Origin: a virus | Reading direction: 5' to 3' (one strand) | Length of the DNA stretch: 27,327 bases | IMG/VR virus record: IMGVR_UViG_3300021403_000554 | Coordinates: 1 to 27,327 of that record | Shown here: in pieces, positions 6,458 through 23,713 of the stretch | How positions within the stretch are numbered: position 1 is the stretch's first letter | Layout: every line of letters begins with the position of its first letter | Notes under the pieces: model-generated | What the model was told of the DNA's origin: nothing | Seen by the model: only the letters and a program-made list of their open reading frames with translations | Databases searched by the model: none | Translations under genes and position numbers: made by a program

Positions 6458-8482
6458 TTATGCCCTCTTCCTCTTTAGTGCTCGCGTAACTTCATTGGCG
6501 ATCATGTTGCTGTGTGTGCGGATGTGCTGCTGAAATGATGCGGCGTCTACTGCATTTACAGAATGGTTCACGATGATTGTGGCGCCTCCGCCTCCGCTCC
6601 CACCACCGCTAATCACGCTGCGCATCTGGTTGGCGATCCCGGCAGGCAAAACCATTTCCTGAGGATGAAGCATGGTGAGTTGGTTGTTGGGTACGTAATA
6701 TTGACCACCTTCAGCGGAACCAAAAGAAACGACTCCGGCAAAAGCCGCGGCGGCGGCGATTGGCGCAAGCACCGGGCCTACAACATCAATGCCTGCGGTG
6801 GCTTTCCAGGCATTCTTGGCAGCGCTATACGCGGTGCGCAAATCCTCTTTTTGGGTAGTGGCCTTACTGATGGCTTCTTTTGTTTCTTCTGTCTGCGCAT
6901 GGATAGCAATCTCCATCACCTTTTTCTGGAGAAACGCCATCAGCTGCTTTTCCAGGCCTTCCACAAACTTGGTGGCCATATCGTCCACCATCTTGTCCCA
7001 TGCCTGGCCAATACTCTTATTGCCGCTCAAAATGTTGCGGGTAAAGCCGGAAAATACACCTTCCATTCCGGAAAAGACCCGGCGAATCTGATTGGCCAGA
7101 TTCTGGTACTGCTTTTCTTGTTCTGTGATTGATTCTGTAGTGGCTTTTGCCCTGATGAGTTCCTGCTGCGCTTTGAGCTTGGTGATTTCTGCTTCAATAC
7201 GAGCTACTGCTTTTTCGTCACCTTCATTCAACCGCGCCAGTCCCGCATAGTAGTCAATCTCAATCTGCAATTCTTTCTGCTTGGCAGCGGCCAAGGCGGC
7301 GATTTCCTGCTGCTTGCTGATTTGCCCTTTGGCAAACTGTTGCTGAATGAGCTGCTCTTCTGTCTGTTCCTTGATCTTGGCTGCGTCAACCTCGCCCTTC
7401 ATTTCAATTTCGGCGGCCTCAAGTTTTTCCTGGCTGGCTTTTATGATCTGTTCATTTTGGCGTTTGGCTTCATTCAGGCTCTCAAGGTCGCTCTTTACTG
7501 CGCTCTGCAGCTGTTCTTTTTGTGCCCGGTCTTGTATTTCGTGCACATCAGCAGCAGCCGTCTTTTCTAAATCATCAAGAGAAACATTTTCCTGTTTCTT
7601 TACGGTAACAACCTGTTGACTAGCTTGCTTCTCTGCTAAGATGCGCTTTTCATCAGCTATAAATGTTTCATTTTGCAGATCTTGAAGCCCTGCCCCATAA
7701 ATCCCTTCAAGATCACGAATCGTCGCCTGTGCTTGTTTCACTTGTTCATCGGAAATTACCGGCATGTTGTAAGTATTTCGCATGCCTGTACGCGGATTTC
7801 GATAGTCCGATTGAACCTGCTTAGTCTCCCCTTTTGCCGCCTCCGCCAATAGAGCTTTTGCCGCAGCATAACGCTCGGTCGCAAGTTTTAAATATCCCTT
7901 GTCTTCCGCCAGATCCTCTTGTGCAAATTGCGCACGAAGACGAGCCTGCTCCGCCTCAGATTTGCCAACAAGGAGAGTTTCACGCCTGATGGCAATTACT
8001 TGTCTTTCAAAGCTGATTGCTTTCCTGACAGATTGAACATGGGCATCGATGGCGCCCTTTTCTTCATCGGACAAATTGCGCCACGATTCAATCAGATCTT
8101 CTACCTTGCTGATCACATCAACAATGGCCTGCGCCACCGCCAAAATAGCCAGCGGCTCAAAGGCCGCATCAAGCAGAGGGCCGGCAATCTCGCTTTCGGC
8201 AGCCATTTTCTGCAATGCGCCCGGTATCTTGATGCCGATTGCATCACTCAGGAGTTCTGCCGCCCCGGTGGCTTTATCTATCTGCTCTTTGCTGCGAGTA
8301 TATGTTTCATCTGACTCGGAAGCTACAGCCTTCAATGCTTCGACCGCGTTGGTGCCCGCCTGGTTCCAACCATCTGACACTGCTTGCGCAGCATCACTGG
8401 ACAACTCTTTTGCGCGGTCCATTCCGGACGCTAGCTCATCGGTATCAGCAAGAAATTTCCATTGGGTTTGAATATCAGCCAT
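6458..8482 (-). CDS. Tail tape-measure protein
   Basis: This 674-aa protein is rich in Ala, Glu, Lys and Gln with long heptad-like stretches between about residues 140 and 440, so it is mainly coiled coil. A hydrophobic segment (about 565-587, VVGPVLAPIAAAAAFAGVV) is followed by GGQYYVPNNQLTMLHPQEMV, a Gly-rich linker (GGGSGGGG), and a basic C-terminus ending ALKRKRA. This organisation is typical of siphophage tape measures, which set tail length. At about 0.15 nm per residue the tail would be near 100 nm. The frame extends upstream to a TTG at 8536, but that codon abuts a terminator T-run, so the ATG at 8482 (MADIQTQWKF) is preferred. The gene follows a lipoprotein moron that separates it from the tail chaperones. 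Confidence 0.87.
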   Translation of the reverse strand: MADIQTQWKFLADTDELASGMDRAKELSSDAAQAVSDGWNQAGTNAVEALKAVASESDETYTRSKEQIDKATGAAELLSDAIGIKIPGALQKMAAESEIAGPLLDAAFEPLAILAVAQAIVDVISKVEDLIESWRNLSDEEKGAIDAHVQSVRKAISFERQVIAIRRETLLVGKSEAEQARLRAQFAQEDLAEDKGYLKLATERYAAAKALLAEAAKGETKQVQSDYRNPRTGMRNTYNMPVISDEQVKQAQATIRDLEGIYGAGLQDLQNETFIADEKRILAEKQASQQVVTVKKQENVSLDDLEKTAAADVHEIQDRAQKEQLQSAVKSDLESLNEAKRQNEQIIKASQEKLEAAEIEMKGEVDAAKIKEQTEEQLIQQQFAKGQISKQQEIAALAAAKQKELQIEIDYYAGLARLNEGDEKAVARIEAEITKLKAQQELIRAKATTESITEQEKQYQNLANQIRRVFSGMEGVFSGFTRNILSGNKSIGQAWDKMVDDMATKFVEGLEKQLMAFLQKKVMEIAIHAQTEETKEAISKATTQKEDLRTAYSAAKNAWKATAGIDVVGPVLAPIAAAAAFAGVVSFGSAEGGQYYVPNNQLTMLHPQEMVLPAGIANQMRSVISGGGSGGGGATIIVNHSVNAVDAASFQQHIRTHSNMIANEVTRALKRKRA

Positions 8483-8535: not shown

Positions 8536-8561
8536 ATAAAAAAGCAGCCCGAAGGCTGCTT
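8536..8561 (-). terminator. Intrinsic terminator of the lipoprotein gene
   Basis: On the minus strand AGCAGCC-TTCG-GGCTGCT (8543-8560) has a perfect 7-bp stem and a stable TTCG tetraloop, followed by TTTTTTATT. It lies 23 nt after the lipoprotein stop codon and before the tape-measure start. This is the best intrinsic terminator in the window. Confidence 0.85.
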
Positions 8562-8583
8562 GATTCTGGTTGCTTACGATTTG

Positions 8584-9279
8584 CTACAAGACGGTCCAGC
8601 CTTTTTTATCTCTTTTAAATGTTGCTGTCGAATTCTTCGTATAATCTTCTGGTGGAACGGGCATTGGCAGCATTTCCGCTATACCACGCTTAAAAACTCC
8701 CAGTTCAACACGCTGAACTGAATTCAAACTTCGGTAGATCCTTCCATCTTGTCTTAAAGCTTGCCCTAGTTCCGTGGGCTTCCACTTCCAGGTATAGTCA
8801 GCTTTGGGATAAATTTGATCAGCAGAAAGATCGGTAACATCTACAAGCTCTGGAGTGGCCAGCGGGAAATCTACTTGCTGGTAATCACAACCAGCACCGG
8901 AGTTGTGCGCAAAAGGCTTGCCCTCAGAGCCTTGTGCCATGGCCGTGTTGCCCTGGTCAGTCAAGGTTACTTTCCAAAAGCCTTTGCCATCCGGCACTAC
9001 TGTTACATACCCTGCTCGCTTGGCAATAATTGTGTTTAAGTCAGACTCGGGATCCATGGAATTTTCCATGCTGTTACCATACAGCCCTTTTTCCACGCAA
9101 TGCCTTCCTACTCGTCCAACTTGTACAAAAAGATCAACCTCCTCGATCTTAAGGGATATTCTGATCTCTTGTGCCGCAATATTCTTGTCCATTGGGATCA
9201 ATTTCTCAGAAGTGGATTTCTTTTCTGATGAACACCCAGCCAAAATACCGGCCACCAGCAGAAGTACTACCCTTTTCAT
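8584..9279 (-). CDS. Lipoprotein moron in the tail operon, function unknown
   Basis: This 231-aa protein starts MKRVVLLLVAGILAGCSSEKK, a clean signal-peptidase II lipobox (LAGC, Cys16 lipidated). Ser at +2 predicts outer-membrane sorting under the usual rule. The remainder is soluble and has two further cysteines in GRHCVEKG and GAGCDYQQ. I do not recognise a named domain. The ATG at 9279 is chosen because GAGGAGG lies 8 nt upstream and the lipobox then sits correctly; the frame itself extends further. The gene sits between tail chaperone and tape measure, normally adjacent genes, and has its own promoter and terminator, the hallmark of a moron. Phage lipoproteins of this kind often block superinfecting phage at the receptor (for example T5 Llp), so exclusion or lysogenic conversion is the leading guess. 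Confidence 0.82.
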   Translation of the reverse strand: MKRVVLLLVAGILAGCSSEKKSTSEKLIPMDKNIAAQEIRISLKIEEVDLFVQVGRVGRHCVEKGLYGNSMENSMDPESDLNTIIAKRAGYVTVVPDGKGFWKVTLTDQGNTAMAQGSEGKPFAHNSGAGCDYQQVDFPLATPELVDVTDLSADQIYPKADYTWKWKPTELGQALRQDGRIYRSLNSVQRVELGVFKRGIAEMLPMPVPPEDYTKNSTATFKRDKKGWTVL

Positions 9280-9301
9280 TCGCCCCTCCTCAAAAGGCCG
9301 T

Positions 9302-9331
9302 ATAGTACTATCCATCTGCAATTTCAGTCAA
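9302..9331 (-). promoter_or_regulatory. Sigma70-like promoter of the lipoprotein moron
   Basis: On the minus strand TTGACT (9326-9331, 5 of 6 to consensus) and TACTAT (9302-9307, 4 of 6) are separated by 18 nt. A start site is expected near 9294, about 15 nt before the ATG, with the GAGGAGG ribosome site in between. The promoter begins immediately after the end of the tail chaperone frame. Confidence 0.65.
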
Positions 9332-9350
9332 CAAAAATAGTAGAACTATT
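9302..9350 (-). promoter_or_regulatory. Twin operator-like palindromes around the moron promoter
   Basis: Two inverted repeats share the half-site ATAGT/ACTAT. AATAGTAGAACTATT (9336-9350) lies just upstream of the -35 box, and ATAGTACTAT (9302-9311) overlaps the -10 box. Their centres are about 36.5 bp apart. The layout fits a dimeric repressor binding two sites, which would keep the moron off or link it to the lysogenic state. No regulator is visible in the window. The upstream repeat followed by TTTTTG could also act as a weak terminator of the chaperone message. Confidence 0.45.
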
Positions 9351-9678
9351 GCGTCCGATAGATGGAAGGAAGTTTGCCCAAAGATGATCCTCCAACAGAG
9401 GCGACTGCGTGCGATAGCTCAAGAAGCTGGCTGGAAGGTGCCTTCTCTTGTTTGATCTTTTGTCTACCACCAGTGAGATAAGCTGACACCAATACATGGG
9501 TTGGAGGATAGTCCTGCCAATAAGCCATTAAATCATTTAAGTCCCAAAGCGTGAGCTGTTCAATCTGGGCGAAAGTCCATCCGGTAGCGGTTGCGACATG
9601 GCCAAAAATAAATGGCCAATCAACTATGCCGGTACCGGAGTTGGTTCCCCCGCAGGCGCCTTTTTGAGTCCGGATACC
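9346..9678 (-). CDS. Frameshift extension of the tail assembly chaperone (GT product)
   Basis: This frame has no strong start of its own. It is open from an in-frame TGA at 9679-9681 to the TAG at 9346 and is -1 relative to the upstream chaperone gene. Its translation (DWPFIFGHVATATGWTFAQI, then EQLTLWDLNDLMAYW and DYPPTHVLVSAYL) closely resembles the second half of siphophage tail chaperones, including the 'GWT...L.L.DL..L..YW....P' pattern. An ATG at 9528 would yield only the last 60 residues and would split this conserved region. I therefore read it as the T part of a G-GT pair made by a programmed -1 frameshift, giving a fusion of about 194 aa. The stop lies inside an operator-like palindrome at the edge of the moron. 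Confidence 0.78.
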   Translation of the reverse strand, partial: GIRTQKGACGGTNSGTGIVDWPFIFGHVATATGWTFAQIEQLTLWDLNDLMAYWQDYPPTHVLVSAYLTGGRQKIKQEKAPSSQLLELSHAVASVGGSSLGKLPSIYRTQ

Positions 9679-9929
9679 TCAAGCACAGCGTTGAAAAGCG
9701 CATTGAAATCATCGAAAGTGAGGCCATTCTCAAGCTGCTCCGAAGAGAGATCCTGATGCACTTTACGAACGGCATTGAGAACCACCGGTAAGTAACGCAG
9801 GAGAGCTGCCAGTCCGGAATTATCAGATTTTTCCTGGAACAAAGAATCGAGCTGGCGTAATTCGCCGAGTGTGAGAGAAGAGACAGTAAGCTGTCCCATG
9901 GAAGTAGCTATTGTTTGTTGCTTAAGCAT
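9624..9929 (-). CDS. Tail assembly chaperone, short (G-like) product
   Basis: This 101-aa acidic helical protein lies between the tail-tube gene and the tape measure, the invariant position of the lambda G/GT-type chaperones that coat the tape measure before tube polymerisation. Sequence features are LTVSSLTLGELRQLDSLF and a helical repeat that includes LSSEQLENGLTFDDFNALF, ending in a Pro/Ala linker (PAGEPTPVPA). The linker is where frameshifting would join it to the downstream frame. AAAGGA precedes the ATG by 9 nt. The overlap with the -1 frame runs from 9624 to 9678. Confidence 0.8.
   Translation of the reverse strand: MLKQQTIATSMGQLTVSSLTLGELRQLDSLFQEKSDNSGLAALLRYLPVVLNAVRKVHQDLSSEQLENGLTFDDFNALFNAVLEVSGLKKAPAGEPTPVPA
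9645..9666 (-). promoter_or_regulatory. Candidate -1 ribosomal frameshift site
   Basis: Within the only stretch where both frames are open (9627-9678), two slippery-like runs occur on the minus strand: CAAAAAG (9660-9666, read in frame as AAA AAG) and GGGGGAA (9645-9651, read as GGG GAA). CAAAAAG allows good A-site re-pairing. Neither is a perfect X-XXY-YYZ heptamer, so which one is used is uncertain. Confidence 0.5.
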
Positions 9930-9949: not shown

Positions 9950-9979
9950 ATTAAAAATGGGCCTGATTGCTCAGGCCCT
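9950..9979 (-). terminator. Terminator-like hairpin between tail tube and chaperone genes
   Basis: On the minus strand GGGCCTGA-GCAA-TCAGGCCC (9959-9978), an 8-bp perfect stem with a GCAA tetraloop, is followed by ATTTTTAATTT. It lies between the major tail protein stop and the chaperone ribosome site. Partial termination here would make tube protein far more abundant than chaperone. Confidence 0.75.
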
Positions 9980-15261: not shown

Positions 15262-15286
15262 TGAAAAAGGCAGCCGTGAGGCTGCC
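15262..15286 (-). terminator. Intrinsic terminator after the broken secreted-protein gene
   Basis: On the minus strand GGCAGCC-TCAC-GGCTGCC (15269-15286), a perfect 7-bp stem with a 4-nt loop, runs straight into TTTTTCATTT. It lies between the pseudogene stop and the protease ribosome site. Confidence 0.8.
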
Positions 15287-15313
15287 GCTGGATGAGTAAT
15301 GAAGTACTGAGAA

Positions 15314-16070
15314 TTATCGGGGCGGAGCGGAAGCTTGTCCGATGCCGCACATGCTGGCAATTAGATGATCAAACACATCGGCGGCTTCTGCCGAGGCGTC
15401 ATAGTATTCGATATGGGTTCCTCCGATGAAGGCCCATCGCCAGTGTTTTCCATCAACAGTGATCCCGCTGAGGTCCAGCTTAGTTCCGTTTTCGGCTGGA
15501 TGAACAATGATGTCATTCGTTTCGTCCAACGCATCGACATGAGGGTAACCAAGAGAAACGCCACCTGAAGCGAACGTGATGGTCTGGGGGTTTTTCCCCG
15601 GATAGGAGATCTCGATAAACCTGGCATCTGCTCCTCGAGATACTTTTATTTTTGTCTTTTCTGGGATGGCAATGCGGCCATTTAGTCCAACTCGCAGGGT
15701 CTTCCACATCGGCGTGGAATCTGAACACTGCAGGAGTGAAACAGTCCCACGCTCGGCAGCAGCTTTCATCACAACCAACGGGTTTCCGGGAAGGCCATCC
15801 ACGCGATAGAGCTGAGGCAAGATATCCTTCTTTTTGTACAAACAGAGCATCTGGGGTTGTCTTGAGATGAAACACTCCCGCCTCGTCGGTTTGGGACAGG
15901 ATCCCAAGTTCTACGTCTCCGCCACCCTTGCGTACCAGTAAGACAGTGGCGCTGCGAAGCGGGGATCCTGATTCGGTAATGACGCGCCCTTCAAAATCTG
16001 GCTGACTCGCTGCAAATGAAAGCGATAGGAACAAACCCACTACATGAAGAAGATTTAAAAGCCTAGCCAT
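15314..16070 (-). pseudogene. Secreted carboxypeptidase-regulatory-like protein broken by one base
   Basis: Two overlapping frames make one protein. From 16070 the first frame has a signal peptide (MARLLNLLHVVGLFLSLSFA) and a CarboxypepD_reg-type beta sandwich (FEGRVITESGSPLRSATVLL, ALFVQKEGYL). The second frame resumes with QLYRVDGLPGNPLVVMKAAA and continues to a domain with HWRWAFIGGTHIEYYDASAE and VFDHLIASMCGIG, ending at 15314. Removing one base near 15818 would restore YLPQLYRVDG and a 251-aa protein. GGAGGAG precedes the ATG closely. The gene lies between portal and protease, which are usually adjacent, and is followed by an intrinsic terminator, so it looks like a second moron of bacterial origin. 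The lesion could be real decay or a sequencing error. No convincing promoter was found. Confidence 0.72.
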
Positions 16071-16173
16071 CTTTCTCCTCCCACGATATCGGACGCAGTC
16101 AAATTGAACCTATTCCCAAACTCTTTCGATGTCGAGATTACTTTTGACTGCGGAAGAAGAGGTTTCTTGATTT

Positions 16174-19537: not shown

Positions 19538-20785
19538 ATGTCGCAAGGCCTGGACAACCTCAAACATATTGTCGTTTTGATGATGGAGAACCGCTCCTTT
19601 GACCACATGCTGGGCGGACTGAAGAAGAAATATCCCAAGATCAATGGACTGACCGGGAATGAATCGAATCCGGACAGCGCGGGGAGCAAAGTTCAGGTTT
19701 CAGCGACAGCCGACTATCGCGGACAGCTGAGCCATGATCCGGACCACCATTTTCCGGGGGTCGATTTGCAGATTTACGGCGGCGCGCCGTATGCCCCTGG
19801 ACGTGTGGCCAATATGCAGGGATTTGTGCAGAGTTATGGAACGCAAGGACCGAACGTACAGGATTCACACGCGATCATGAATTACTTTTCACCGGAGAAA
19901 ATTCCAGTTTTGACCACGCTTGCCACTGAGTACGCCTTGTTCAACGGGTGGTTCGCGTCGATTCCAGGGCCGACGATTTGCAATCGGGCATTTGCGCACT
20001 ATGGCACATCATTCGGCAATGTAGACATGAACATGTTTCTGGTCAGCGATGCTGACCGGGCGAAGATCCCAACAATCTACGAACGGCTGGCGGCCGGCGG
20101 ACACAGCGCCAAGCTTTATTACTACGATCAGCCGAGCTCGACGATGGAGATTGTTAACCTGATCAAGGACCAGAGCTTCTTTGGCGTATTCAGCGATTTT
20201 GTGGCTGACTGCAAATCAGGAAATCTGCCGGAGTACAGCTTTGTGGAGCCGAATTATTCGGACCATCCGGCGCCTGATGGCACACAGTTGCTGGCTACGG
20301 ACCAGCATCCGGACCATCATGTGCTTGCGGGCGACAATTTTATTGGGAAAGTTTATGACTGCATCCGCATCAATCCCGACCTGTGGAAGAGCACCGTGCT
20401 GCTGATCGTCTATGACGAGCATGGCGGACTTTACGATCACGTGGTTCCACCGGACTGCACGCCAGATGGTTTTCAGGCGCCTGAGGCATCCACGGGAGTA
20501 CCGGGGCTGACATTTAAATTCGACCGGCTGGGAATTCGGGTGCCGGCGGTGCTGGTTTCTCCATACGTTCCGCGGGGAATGGTCATTCCCGGACCAGAAG
20601 ATTCCCAGAACCAGAGAATTTTTGAGCATTCCTCAATCCCGGCAACAGTAAGCCGGCATTTCCTGGGCGGCAATGATATGGGCACTCCACGAGAGCAGAA
20701 GGCGCAGACGTTTCTGGACCTGATGGGTGACAATTTTCGTCCGGACAGTGACTGCGTATTTTTTCCCAAAGCAATGAAAGGGTGA
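19538..20785 (+). CDS. Phosphoesterase-family protein (phospholipase C / acid phosphatase type)
   Basis: This 415-aa protein of the alkaline-phosphatase superfamily (PF04185 type) hydrolyses phosphate esters, either phospholipids or phosphomonoesters, and likely uses metal ions. Visible motifs are VVLMMENRSFDHMLGG (Glu17-Asn18), PGPTICNR (144-150), FVEPNYSDHP (235-244), DQHPDHHV (255-262), VYDEHGGLYDHVVPP (291-305) and RVPAVLVSPYVPRG. All family landmarks are present. Unlike many relatives it has no Sec or Tat signal, so it should be cytoplasmic or leave by an unknown route. AAGGAG lies 7 nt before the ATG. It is the first gene of a three-gene plus-strand operon, antisense to the phage genes. 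Substrate is unknown. Confidence 0.88.
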   Translation: MSQGLDNLKHIVVLMMENRSFDHMLGGLKKKYPKINGLTGNESNPDSAGSKVQVSATADYRGQLSHDPDHHFPGVDLQIYGGAPYAPGRVANMQGFVQSYGTQGPNVQDSHAIMNYFSPEKIPVLTTLATEYALFNGWFASIPGPTICNRAFAHYGTSFGNVDMNMFLVSDADRAKIPTIYERLAAGGHSAKLYYYDQPSSTMEIVNLIKDQSFFGVFSDFVADCKSGNLPEYSFVEPNYSDHPAPDGTQLLATDQHPDHHVLAGDNFIGKVYDCIRINPDLWKSTVLLIVYDEHGGLYDHVVPPDCTPDGFQAPEASTGVPGLTFKFDRLGIRVPAVLVSPYVPRGMVIPGPEDSQNQRIFEHSSIPATVSRHFLGGNDMGTPREQKAQTFLDLMGDNFRPDSDCVFFPKAMKG

Positions 20786-20788
20786 GTT

Positions 20789-21139
20789 ATGGCGATTAAA
20801 GACGCTCCGACAGTCGATACCATTGATTTTGACGAGAAGGCAGCCTACAACCCGGACCGGCCGATTTCGAGTTTGATCCGCACGCAGCTTTTGCATCTCC
20901 ATTTAGCGGAGCATATTGCGGTTCCGGAGAAGGAGCGCACGAATACAAACATCAATATGCTGCATACGGAGCGGCAAGCCAGCGAGTACATACAAAAAGT
21001 GACGGCGCTGCTGCACAAGTACGGCAAGAAAACTGCAAAGAAGTCAAAGCCAATCAAGAAGAAGGCATCGGCCAAGAAGACAGCCAAGTCCAAGAAGAAG
21101 ACAAAATCAGCTCAAAAGAAGCGTACGTCGCGCAGGTAA
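20789..21139 (+). CDS. Small protein with a histone-like Lys/Ala tail
   Basis: This 116-aa protein has a globular N-terminal part (residues 1-76: PDRPISSLIRTQLLHLHLAE, NMLHTERQASEYIQKVTALL), probably helical. The C-terminal tail is almost all Lys, Ala, Ser and Thr (KKKASAKKTAKSKKKT), like histone H1 or HU tails. It starts 3 nt after the phosphoesterase stop with a GGGTGAG site, so it is coupled. The tail suggests binding of nucleic acid or anionic membrane/polymer. I do not know a function. The N-terminal part looks like a conserved domain I have no name for. Confidence 0.7.
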   Translation: MAIKDAPTVDTIDFDEKAAYNPDRPISSLIRTQLLHLHLAEHIAVPEKERTNTNINMLHTERQASEYIQKVTALLHKYGKKTAKKSKPIKKKASAKKTAKSKKKTKSAQKKRTSRR

Positions 21140-21149
21140 GGAGAAGTCA

Positions 21150-22568
21150 GTGCGTCGATTGATTCTGGCATTTATGTTGCTTTCAGTGAGCCTCTGGGCA
21201 CAGCAGCCCTCTCCCACACCAACCCCTAATCCAGGTGCAAAGAATGAAGAGGAAAAAGAGCCGGCCACGGAGTCGGGCAAGTTCAAACTGAACTGCCTGG
21301 GCTTCCACATAGCAGGATGCGCTGAGTTGCTGTTCACCGGGCAGCCACTCCACATCGCCGTGGGAAGCATTGCGCCACAAAATGGCTTTGGCGCGGGGCT
21401 GGCGTATGTCGGACACAAAGATACCGACAACTGGAGCACGTCATGGAGCGCAGACGCCATCGGCTCGAGCAACGCATCATGGCGCGCAGGCTTCTTTCTG
21501 AAATTCGTGGACACGCGTCTTGAGCCGTCCAATGTAACGATGGGAACTGCGGGCGCAAATCCTAATGACATACAGCCTTATGCGGAGCGGCCGGTTTACA
21601 ACATTTATGAGCAATCGATTTCGCTCAACAAGTTGACGTTCTTTGGCGAAGGACCCGCAACAACAACGGCAGGACGGTCATTCTTTGGGATGACAGAGCA
21701 CATTGTGGGCGGCAATATGATTCGGCCGCTCTATGAGAAGCTCAACATGAGTTTTCTTGCCGAGGTCAATGGGCGCCTGGCGGATATTCGTTCAAGCACA
21801 GGGCAGAAATCACCCTCCATCGAGGCGATCTATACAGCTGCGACCGCACCTGGCCTGGCGCACCAGCCATTTTTTCTGCAGCTGGGCGCGGGCGTGAGAA
21901 TGCGACCGTCGGCAGCGAAGAATCTTCTGCATTTTGATTACAGCGCGATATACCAGCCGTTCATCGACACAGACGGTTCGGGTTTTTCATTTCAGCGATT
22001 GACCTTTGATCTGAACCAGCAGATTTCGTTGTATCACCACAATGTGTATGTGGCGCGAGACACGAACGATCCGAACGATTGCCGCATGGATCCGACAGAT
22101 GCTCATTCAAAGTGCCCGCCTGCAACCAGCCGGACCATGCAAGGCACGCTGGGGCTGAGGATATTCACTTCCCTTTCCATGGTGCCGGGCAACAACGTGG
22201 TGCCGTTTTATTTCCAGCCAACGCTGGGCGGATCGGACATTAATGGAAATTCAATTTTGAGCAGCTACCAGGATTACCGGTTTCGAGCGCCGAATGTCTT
22301 CTTGTTGGAAGAATCATTGGACCATTCGATTGGCAATTTGCCGCTGGGAATATTGCTGCGCGCCGATCAGGGCAAGATCGCTTTGTTGCGCGGCGACCTG
22401 GGCAGCAATTCATGGCGACATAGTTATGCCGCCGGCCTGACCTTGCGCGCTGGCGGCTTCCCTATGGTGTATTTGCTGTTTGCGTTTGGCGGACAGGAAG
22501 GCACGCATACGATCGCAAACGTGAATACATCATTGCTGGGGAGTTCCGCCAGGCCGAGTTTGTTCTAG
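21150..22568 (+). CDS. Outer-membrane beta-barrel protein
   Basis: This 472-aa protein has a Sec signal peptide (MRRLILAFMLLSVSLWAQ), a Pro/Thr-rich linker (QQPSPTPTPNPG), then alternating amphipathic strands throughout. It includes GFGAGLAYVGHKDTDNWSTS, FLQLGAGVRMRPSAAKN and SYAAGLTLRAGGFPMVYL, and ends in Phe, the usual outer-membrane insertion signal. It resembles BamA/surface-antigen-type barrels in its C-terminal part, without visible POTRA domains. The start is GTG with AAGGAG 6 nt upstream, 10 nt after the Lys-rich gene. It could serve as a channel or anchor for its operon partners; this is inference. Confidence 0.72.
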   Translation: MRRLILAFMLLSVSLWAQQPSPTPTPNPGAKNEEEKEPATESGKFKLNCLGFHIAGCAELLFTGQPLHIAVGSIAPQNGFGAGLAYVGHKDTDNWSTSWSADAIGSSNASWRAGFFLKFVDTRLEPSNVTMGTAGANPNDIQPYAERPVYNIYEQSISLNKLTFFGEGPATTTAGRSFFGMTEHIVGGNMIRPLYEKLNMSFLAEVNGRLADIRSSTGQKSPSIEAIYTAATAPGLAHQPFFLQLGAGVRMRPSAAKNLLHFDYSAIYQPFIDTDGSGFSFQRLTFDLNQQISLYHHNVYVARDTNDPNDCRMDPTDAHSKCPPATSRTMQGTLGLRIFTSLSMVPGNNVVPFYFQPTLGGSDINGNSILSSYQDYRFRAPNVFLLEESLDHSIGNLPLGILLRADQGKIALLRGDLGSNSWRHSYAAGLTLRAGGFPMVYLLFAFGGQEGTHTIANVNTSLLGSSARPSLF

Positions 22569-22726
22569 AGCTTGAAATTCCAATAGCAGGGCAAGGCGAG
22601 AGTCTTTTCACGATTGATAGAGCCATCTTCATTTCTGAAGACGGGAGTTTCGGGTTTGGGACCGTCGGCGGATTGACCGAGATAGGCGGCGAGACGGGCC
22701 AGGAAGATGTCGTCGGTTATGATCAT
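22565..22726 (-). CDS. Small 53-aa protein, unrecognised
   Basis: The frame begins MIITDDIFLARLAAYLGQSA and ends KTLALPCYWNFKL. It has GAGGT 8 nt before the ATG and reads in the phage direction, overlapping the end of the barrel gene tail-to-tail by 4 nt. Composition looks protein-like. It may be a leftover phage gene stranded inside the cargo block, in line with the other minus-strand genes. A hairpin region (22752-22794) lies upstream. Confidence 0.5.
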   Translation of the reverse strand: MIITDDIFLARLAAYLGQSADGPKPETPVFRNEDGSINREKTLALPCYWNFKL

Positions 22727-22822
22727 TTTTGGGACCTCGGGTTTCAGGGAATGAGTGAATATTTGCGGCGGCTAACGCAAGATCCCTCACTCATGGACGG
22801 AGTACGGATGGCTTAATGTCTT

Positions 22823-22930
22823 GTGAGAATGCCTTGAAATGGCATGGTTAGTTCAGGCATTCTCGGGGTCCTTCGACTCTACCTCACGCCCGATGGCGCT
22901 CGGTGTCGCTCAGGATGACACAGGGTTGAG
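22823..22930. repeat. 108-bp dispersed repeat, copy 1
   Basis: About 90% identical, without gaps, to 23945-24052 (offset 1122). It contains an inverted repeat (GAGAATGCC and GGCATTCTC, 22825-22864) and the motif CCTTCGACTC...CGCTCAGGATGACAC, a type I associate with dispersed intergenic elements in bacteria of this kind. It lies directly upstream of the HhH-GPD gene. Confidence 0.85.
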
Positions 22931-22932
22931 GG

Positions 22933-22962
22933 TCTAGAAATCTTGTAAAACCATTCTAGAAT
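22933..22962 (+). promoter_or_regulatory. Inverted repeat and -10-like box before the HhH-GPD gene
   Basis: TCTAGAA (22933-22939) and TTCTAGA (22954-22960) are perfect 7-bp arms spaced 21 bp centre to centre, two helical turns. TAGAAT (22957-22962) could be a -10 box, but no matching -35 is seen, so this is a weak regulatory call. Confidence 0.3.
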
Positions 22963-23011
22963 TAGGAACTCTGTGTAAGTTTTTTTCCTTCTGCGATATG
23001 CTTTGCCCGAC

Positions 23012-23713
23012 ATGCCCGAGCTTAAAAAGCTAATAGCAAAACTGAAGAAGCATTATGGTGATCCGGCCATACCTCCGGCGCGCGGGCCGTTTGAGCTGGT
23101 GATGTGGGAGAATGCATGTTATCTGCTGCCTGATGATCGTCGCGCCGCCGTTTTTGAGGGCCTGCGCAAACGAGTTGGGCTTAATCCAAAAGCAATTCAG
23201 GATGGTGATCCGGATACATTGCTGGAGCTGGCGACGATGGGCGGGATGCGTCCCAAGGTGCGTGTGTTTCGCTGGCAGGAGATTGCACGAATTACGCTCA
23301 GCCAGTTTGACGGCGACCTGGACCAGATACTTGAGCTTCCTTATCCGCAAGCCAAGAAGGCATTGAAGCAGTTCCCTAACATTGGCGATCCGGGAGCGGA
23401 AAAGATTCTGATGTTCTGTGGGGCCGCGCCGGGACTGCCTCTGGAATGGAACGGGCTGCGGGTCCTGACACGGGTTGGTTATGGCAGAGCGCAGAAAAAT
23501 TATGGCGCTACGTATAAATCCGTACAGGAGGCATTGAAGCCGGAGCTTCCGCGCAAAGCGGAGGCAATTGCGCAGGCGCATCTTTTATTGCGGCAGCATG
23601 GTAAAGAAATTTGCCGGGACAAATCGCCGCAGTGTTATTTGTGTCCGGTGAAGGAGATGTGCGCGTATCCGGCAAAGCAGCTGAAGATATTCAGCCGGAG
23701 TGTAGGAGCTTAG
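23012..23713 (+). CDS. Endonuclease III-like HhH-GPD protein with altered catalytic residues
   Basis: This 233-aa protein has a helix-hairpin-helix (QFPNIGDPGAEKIL, 120-133) and an intact C-terminal iron-sulfur motif C-x6-C-x2-C-x5-C (C201, C208, C211, C217), as in Nth/MutY. Aligned to Nth by eye, the catalytic Lys (GVGRKTA) is replaced in NIGDPGA, and the catalytic Asp (VDTH) becomes Glu145 in PLEWNGLRV. The upstream MWENACYLLPD replaces the Nth LLSAQATD helix. It is thus probably a distinct clade, either with another chemistry or binding damage without cutting. The ATG at 23012 is chosen; TTG at 23003 is also possible, and no ribosome site is clear. It is bracketed by 108-bp direct repeats. 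Confidence 0.75.
   Translation: MPELKKLIAKLKKHYGDPAIPPARGPFELVMWENACYLLPDDRRAAVFEGLRKRVGLNPKAIQDGDPDTLLELATMGGMRPKVRVFRWQEIARITLSQFDGDLDQILELPYPQAKKALKQFPNIGDPGAEKILMFCGAAPGLPLEWNGLRVLTRVGYGRAQKNYGATYKSVQEALKPELPRKAEAIAQAHLLLRQHGKEICRDKSPQCYLCPVKEMCAYPAKQLKIFSRSVGA

What the first reader, a model, noticed from the sequence alone, without database searches (positions are those of the whole stretch)
8536..9350. Self-contained lipoprotein moron with its own promoter, twin operators and terminator
Between the tail chaperone and tape measure sits a lipobox protein with TTGACT-18-TACTAT upstream, GAGGAGG before the ATG, and a TTCG-loop intrinsic terminator after it. Two inverted repeats with the same ATAGT/ACTAT half-site flank the -35 and overlap the -10. 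The protein family is unknown to me. Together these suggest a regulated lysogenic-conversion or superinfection-exclusion gene.
Basis: partly seen in the sequence, partly recalled or inferred. Interest (0 to 1): 0.7.

Follow-up and report, generated by a model that had tools for sequence, protein, structure and literature searches.

The report
Swappable lipoprotein cassette beside tape-measure gene
A soil-bacterium virus carries, next to its tail-length gene, a plug-in gene cassette with its own start and stop signals that makes a lipid-anchored envelope protein; sister viruses carry very different versions at the same spot, as phage HK97 does with a protein that blocks rival phages, so it is probably a swappable anti-rival gene.

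Summary
A 231-aa lipobox protein lies between the tail chaperone and the tape-measure gene (TMP), with a sigma70-like promoter, a ribosome site and a UUCG-loop terminator. Sister temperate phages of Acidobacteriota confirm most of it. The slot holds this protein family in 25 of 34 sisters (one more has it just after TMP), as one or two genes. A matching terminator closes 28 of 30 cassettes. Three promoter types occur, and three sisters have no insert. It therefore meets the sequence definition of a moron, in the exact position of the HK97 gp15 superinfection-exclusion moron. The twin 'operators' are statistically unusual in this one sequence but absent from all 24 comparable sisters, so operator status is unsupported. 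The protein matches no Pfam, PHROG, NCBIfam or PADLOC family. It has an invariant cysteine pair, a confident model (pLDDT 89) with at most weak NTF2-like similarity, and distant chromosomal relatives in Acidobacteriota. It and TMP are hypervariable (median identity 35% and 27%) amid 81-91% core genes, but they reshuffle almost independently, which argues against a strict lipoprotein-TMP recognition pair. Best reading: a prophage-expressed periplasmic exclusion protein acting at DNA injection (about 0.45). Expression and phenotype are untested.

The parts
8584..9279 (-). Lipobox protein (231 aa): signal peptide with LAGC|SS, conserved Cys61 and Cys131, GR[VIL], DGxGFWK and WKW motifs
   Evidence: AF2 model pLDDT 89.1, pTM 0.80
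9285..9291 (-). Ribosome-binding site GAGGAGG
   Evidence: sequence
9302..9331 (-). Sigma70-like promoter TTGACT-18-TACTAT (class II; relatives L005 and L033 have TTGACC-17-TACACT / TAACAT)
8542..8561 (-). Intrinsic terminator AAGCAGCC-TTCG-GGCTGCTT + T-run, same design in 28 of 30 sister cassettes
9337..9349 (.). Upstream palindrome ATAGT-tct-ACTAT (overlaps the stop codon of chaperone T); not conserved in sister phages
9302..9311 (.). Palindrome ATAGTACTAT over the -10; not conserved as a palindrome
6458..8482 (-). Tape measure protein (674 aa), the other hypervariable gene; 3' neighbour of the cassette
   Evidence: PHROG 2854 E 8e-24
9346..9929 (-). Tail assembly chaperone G (9624-9929) and its overlapping other-frame extension T (about 9346-9620); 5' neighbour of the cassette

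Best explanation
This is a moron cassette (own promoter, one or two genes, own terminator) in a fixed slot between the tail chaperone and tape-measure genes of temperate Acidobacteriota siphoviruses. SHOWN by sequence: cassette structure, slot, empty slots in some sisters, swapping of alleles, lipobox, temperate family. INFERRED: the prophage transcribes the gene from its own promoter while the late operon is silent. The protein is exported, lipidated, folded around a Cys61-Cys131 disulphide, and stays in the periplasm on the membrane. There it stops related phages after adsorption, at the step where tape measure and tail tip open a way for DNA across the envelope. Because rivals differ in envelope-penetration proteins and required host factors, alleles are under turnover selection, which would explain why very different alleles are exchanged while each is kept by purifying selection. 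The terminator stops this prophage transcript from running into the tail genes; in lytic growth the late transcript must read through it.
For: Same gene order as the annotated HK97 record: chaperone 7472-8145, gp15 'moron product' 8203-8391, terminator 8398-8422, TMP 8435; HK97 gp15 and TP-J34 Ltp block DNA injection, and both blocks are overcome by changing tape-measure genes (PMC10883804; PMC3952083). Own terminator in 28 of 30 cassettes, following the cargo to the far side of TMP in L022, L026, L051 and L043. Promoters of three sequence classes in front of the first gene. Chaperone directly adjacent to TMP in L022, L026 and L051. Lipobox in 24 of 30 family members, two invariant cysteines. 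Purifying selection within allele groups, dN/dS 0.10-0.24, so it is functional. Core genes 81-91% median identity, lipoprotein 35%, TMP 27%. Tyrosine integrase at the very end of 9 of the longer sister records. Alternative cargo in the same place is also membrane protein (zinc ribbon + TM helix).
Against: No expression or phage-challenge data. Lipoprotein and TMP alleles are only weakly associated (Mantel r 0.19, p 0.011; given core genes r 0.17, p 0.017), and swaps are plain: L027/L012 TMP 95% but lipoprotein 24%; L009/L012 lipoprotein 80% but TMP 22%. So the variable part of TMP is probably not a one-to-one target. The +2 residue is Ser, which by the E. coli sorting rule predicts the outer membrane, unlike gp15. 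No sequence similarity to gp15 and no Ltp domain. Chromosomal relatives outside phages show that the fold is not exclusion-specific.
Confidence: 0.45

Rival explanations
1. Moron for lysogenic conversion other than exclusion: a phage-borne version of a host envelope protein that changes the lysogen's cell surface or periplasm (stress, peptidoglycan or secretion upkeep), with no action on other phages.
For: Distant relatives (E 1e-15 to 7e-4) in 12 of 395 other sampled Acidobacteriota genomes; the six read in wider context sit among ordinary chromosomal genes, anchored by TM helix or lipobox, and those genomes lack the phage capsid gene. A second secreted-protein cassette with the same kind of terminator lies in this window between portal and protease.
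Against: Deep allele turnover at a fixed place beside TMP, and alternation with unrelated membrane proteins that also flank TMP, are not expected of a housekeeping function; other cargo positions exist.
Confidence: 0.33
2. Lytic-phase accessory protein: made late and exported to protect progeny or the dying host (for instance to stop released virions from injecting into debris, like T5 Llp or N15/phi80 Cor), so exclusion at the receptor in the outer membrane rather than at injection.
For: Ser at +2 predicts the outer membrane by the E. coli rule; the gene lies inside the late tail operon.
Against: Own promoter and terminator separate it from the late transcript; six family members lack the lipobox cysteine, so outer-membrane anchoring is not essential.
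Confidence: 0.12
3. Tail assembly or virion component.
For: Position between two tail genes.
Against: Export signal, absence from 8 of 34 sister slots, replacement by unrelated proteins, position on either side of TMP, no match to tail families.
Confidence: 0.04
4. Repressor-controlled gene through twin operators, as first proposed (a claim about control that could hold together with any function above).
For: Two palindromes with one half-site around the promoter: 0 of 5000 shuffles, unique in the 27 kb.
Against: None of 24 sister regions has them, including the two with the same promoter class; the upstream one overlaps a stop codon; the repressor region is outside the window. Operators could still be specific to this phage's own repressor.
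Confidence: 0.12

Closest known systems
HK97 gp15 moron (Cumby et al. 2012, as cited in PMC10883804; record NC_002167)
   Same: Same slot between frameshifted tail chaperone and TMP, own terminator just before TMP, temperate phage, membrane-associated product
   Different: gp15 is 62 aa with one TM helix; this is a 231-aa exported lipoprotein of an unrelated family, present as very diverse alleles and often in tandem; exclusion not tested
Ltp lipoprotein of Streptococcus thermophilus phage TP-J34 (PMC3952083)
   Same: [quoted passage not shown] Ltp targets TMP and blocks DNA injection
   Different: Ltp lies in the lysogeny module of a phage of Gram-positive hosts and carries repeat domains; no sequence relation found here; alleles here reshuffle against TMP
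Cor (phi80/N15) and T5 Llp receptor-masking lipoproteins
   Same: Phage-encoded envelope proteins with an exclusion role (named from own knowledge and from references in PMC10883804)
   Different: Weak Cor-like PHROG hit covers only the signal peptide (E 0.37); different size and position
NTF2/cystatin-like folds (ARC6 intermembrane domain, IseA, VirB8, CaMKII hub)
   Same: Weak fold similarity spanning residues about 25-231 (best Z 7.4, rmsd 4.0, 86 aligned)
   Different: No Foldseek hit at E <= 0.001; an extra winged-helix-like insert at about 81-117; common-fold level only

Membership tests
Moron (Hendrix/Juhala sense) | Inserted between two genes that are adjacent in related phages | tested here: met
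   Chaperone directly followed by TMP in L022, L026, L051
Moron (Hendrix/Juhala sense) | Own promoter | tested here: met
   Sigma70-like sites at 17-18 nt spacing in most slots, three classes; sum score 218 vs 191 +/- 4.4; by sequence only, related sequences
Moron (Hendrix/Juhala sense) | Own intrinsic terminator | tested here: met
   28 of 30 cassettes, folding z -4.0 in the window
Moron (Hendrix/Juhala sense) | Base composition differing from neighbours | tested here: inconclusive
   GC 46% and GC3 44%, against 50-57% and mostly 51-66% around it, but the NlpC gene is similar at 48% / 46%
Moron (Hendrix/Juhala sense) | Transcribed in the prophage state | not testable with these tools
   needs RNA from a lysogen
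HK97 gp15 family | Sequence homology to gp15 | tested here: not met
   BLASTP E 0.14 over 9 residues
HK97 gp15 family | Genomic position chaperone - gene - terminator - TMP | tested here: met
   one search compared
Superinfection exclusion protein | Blocks infection by related phages | not testable with these tools
   phage challenge needed
Ltp family | Ltp repeat/HTH domain | tested here: not met
   No Pfam match in the window protein and no Ltp-type match in any of 30 members
Bacterial lipoprotein | Signal peptide with lipobox cysteine | tested here: met
   LAGC|SS in the window protein; 24 of 30 members
NTF2-like superfamily | Cone-like sheet packed on N-terminal helix | tested here: inconclusive
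   Best Z 7.4, no significant Foldseek match

The most novel reading that the evidence does not exclude
The slot is an exclusion-specificity locus of a whole soil-phage family: a phage-borne version of a host envelope protein family, held as many swappable alleles, decides which sister phages can inject into a lysogen, perhaps by standing in for a host protein that tape measure or tail tip needs during entry, rather than by binding the phage's own tape measure.
Probability: 0.15. Interest if true: 0.72.

Novelty: new variant of a known kind. Interest (0 to 1): 0.48.

Why it matters
It extends the HK97-type moron next to the tape-measure gene to temperate phages of Acidobacteriota, abundant soil bacteria whose phages are little studied, with an undescribed protein family. 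About 30 natural alleles, tandem copies, empty slots and alternative cargo form a ready comparative set for asking what sets exclusion specificity during DNA injection. The allele swapping already argues against the simplest model (lipoprotein matched to its own tape measure).

Tried and rejected
Family searches in Pfam, PHROGs, NCBIfam and PADLOC with the window protein and (except PHROGs) all 30 members: nothing convincing. PDB sequence search: no. Foldseek against PDB and BFVD: no hit at E <= 0.001. An IseA-like inhibitor of the phage's own NlpC/P60 tail enzyme was considered because IseA appears in the fold list, but IseA is tied with many unrelated NTF2-like folds; rejected as a claim. 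tblastn in isolated phages and plasmids: none. The genome-contig scan with a five-member alignment gave none; a profile search of 396 genomes then found distant chromosomal relatives. Search for other contigs with the twin-palindrome arrangement: seven unrelated hits. Strict lipoprotein-TMP co-evolution tested and found weak. Rapid point-mutation diversification not supported: dN/dS well below 1 within allele groups. The HK97 gp15 paper itself was not held, so its results are taken from citing papers.

Full report
WHAT IS THERE. On the minus strand, window 9331 to 8542 reads: promoter-like TTGACT-18-TACTAT, ribosome site GAGGAGG, a 231-aa ORF (9279-8584) with signal peptide and lipobox LAGC|SS, then AAGCAGCC-TTCG-GGCTGCTTTTTTATT. 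It lies between the tail assembly chaperone (G 9929-9624, T-frame extension to about 9346) and the tape measure protein (TMP, 8482-6458; PHROG 2854, E 8e-24). The window is a 27,327-base IMG/VR virus record.

SISTER PHAGES. The protein alone found one relative, an alignment found eight, and a tail-gene alignment found 40 IMG/VR loci plus two Acidobacteriota genome contigs (Terriglobia; L051, L052) and one distant Elusimicrobia locus. Every phage-borne relative found is in this phage family. Of 34 records in which the slot can be judged (the window included), 25 carry a family member there (L008, L009, L013, L027, L035 and L052 carry two), L043 carries it just after TMP, and 8 do not. Of those 8, L022, L026 and L051 have chaperone directly followed by TMP and a zinc-ribbon + TM protein after TMP; L041 and L044 have a zinc-ribbon + TM protein in the slot; L025 has another protein; L030 and L038 have no ORF over 100 aa. 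In L004/L007/L027 (one contig) the second copy is frameshifted.

CONTROL SIGNALS. The slot terminator has the same design in 28 of 30 cassettes (0-2 of 100 shuffles as good) and goes with the cargo when the cargo sits downstream of TMP. In front of the first gene there are three promoter types: TTTACA/TTTGCA-17/18-TAGTAT (most), TTGACY-17/18-TAxxxT (window, L005, L033) and TTGCNC-17-TACACT or similar (L014, L045, L052, L019, L028, L025). Any single site is weak; the set scores 218 against 191 +/- 4.4 in shuffles, with the caveat that the sequences are related and the classes were drawn by eye. The twin palindromes are unusual in this sequence (0 of 5000 shuffles) but none of 24 sister regions has ATAGT-N(0-4)-ACTAT, and the arrangement elsewhere in IMG/VR is in unrelated contigs. 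I do not accept them as shown operators; a phage-specific operator remains possible.

LIFESTYLE. A tyrosine integrase sits at the extreme end of 9 of the longer sister records, so the family is temperate; the window itself holds no integrase and appears to stop short of that region.

PROTEIN. 30 members align with two invariant cysteines (61 and 131), and GR[VIL], DGxGFWK and WKW motifs. 24 have a lipobox; six of one subfamily have a hydrophobic N-terminus without the cysteine. The AF2 model from the 30-member alignment is confident (pLDDT 89.1, pTM 0.80): N-terminal helix, an inserted winged-helix-like unit (81-117, my reading of the secondary structure), and a long curved sheet. Structure searches give only NTF2/cystatin-like similarity at common-fold level (best Z 7.4). 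A profile search of 396 Acidobacteriota genomes found the known prophage (G016) and, in 12 others, distant relatives (E 1.5e-15 to 7e-4); the six examined in wider context sit among ordinary chromosomal genes (for example near what read as heme-synthesis or glmS-like genes), anchored by TM helix or lipobox, and those genomes lack the phage capsid gene. So the phage gene is a branch of a host envelope protein family of unknown function.

EVOLUTION. Between sister phages the median pairwise identity is 91% (tail completion), 89% (chaperone), 85% (major tail) and 81% (DUF2460-like tail protein), but 35% for the lipoprotein and 27% for TMP. Within allele groups dN/dS is 0.10-0.24, under purifying selection and mostly somewhat looser than core genes. 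Alleles are swapped: L015/L018 share 99% major tail but 21% lipoprotein; L027/L012 share 95% TMP (over the part held) but 24% lipoprotein; L009/L012 share 80% lipoprotein but 22% TMP. The lipoprotein-TMP association is detectable but weak (Mantel r 0.19, p 0.011; partial r 0.17, p 0.017).

HOW IT MOST LIKELY WORKS. The annotated HK97 record has the same order: frameshifted chaperone, gp15 'moron product', terminator, TMP. HK97 gp15 and the TP-J34 lipoprotein Ltp stop DNA injection and are overcome by changes in tape-measure genes (PMC10883804; PMC3952083). The simplest reading is a prophage-expressed periplasmic exclusion lipoprotein (0.45). The shuffling of alleles against TMP makes a strict own-TMP recognition code unlikely, so the target may be a conserved part of the entry machinery or a host factor. 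General lysogenic conversion is the main rival (0.33). The terminator inside the late operon implies read-through or antitermination in lytic growth; I found no test for that here.

VERDICT. Observation confirmed; moron supported; exclusion plausible and untested; operators unsupported. New variant of a known kind.

Noticed in passing
window 15264-16140 (-): Second moron-like insert between portal and protease: signal-peptide ORF 15513-16070 with weak CarboxypepD_reg match (E 5e-4) overlapped in another frame by ORF 15314-15907 (possibly one gene with a frameshift), followed by hairpin GGCAGCC-TCAC-GGCTGCC-TTTTT of the same design. Only 104-324 nt lie there in 29 of 34 sister loci.
   Followed up: partly
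window 19538-23713 (+): Opposite-strand block between terL and portal: phosphoesterase gene (PF04185, E 3e-68), a small basic protein, a 472-aa exported-looking protein without Pfam match, and a 236-aa protein 88% conserved in L008.
   Followed up: partly
L022:4575-5120, L026:11226-11837, L051:14369-14914, L041:11161-11946, L044:6693-7394: Zinc-ribbon + TM-helix proteins flank TMP (downstream in three, upstream in two) with the same type of terminator, as alternative cargo.
   Followed up: partly
L015:11917-12429 and L031:4565-5215: Unrelated protein ('EKTDQMDGHK' motif, resembling VasI-type proteins from memory; no Pfam match) as second gene in the slot.
   Followed up: no
window 9959-9978 (-): Terminator-like hairpin between major tail protein and chaperone; the HK97 record also lists a putative terminator at that place.
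   Followed up: no
L013:4901-5000 and equivalents: Conserved block CTTTATAAGG...CTTTAGAATGTTCGTTT some 60-120 nt upstream of the gene in the commonest promoter class; possible second regulatory site.
   Followed up: no
L027 10005-10756 (same contig as L004/L007): Second lipoprotein copy broken by a frameshift; L023 has a truncated hybrid of two alleles.
   Followed up: no
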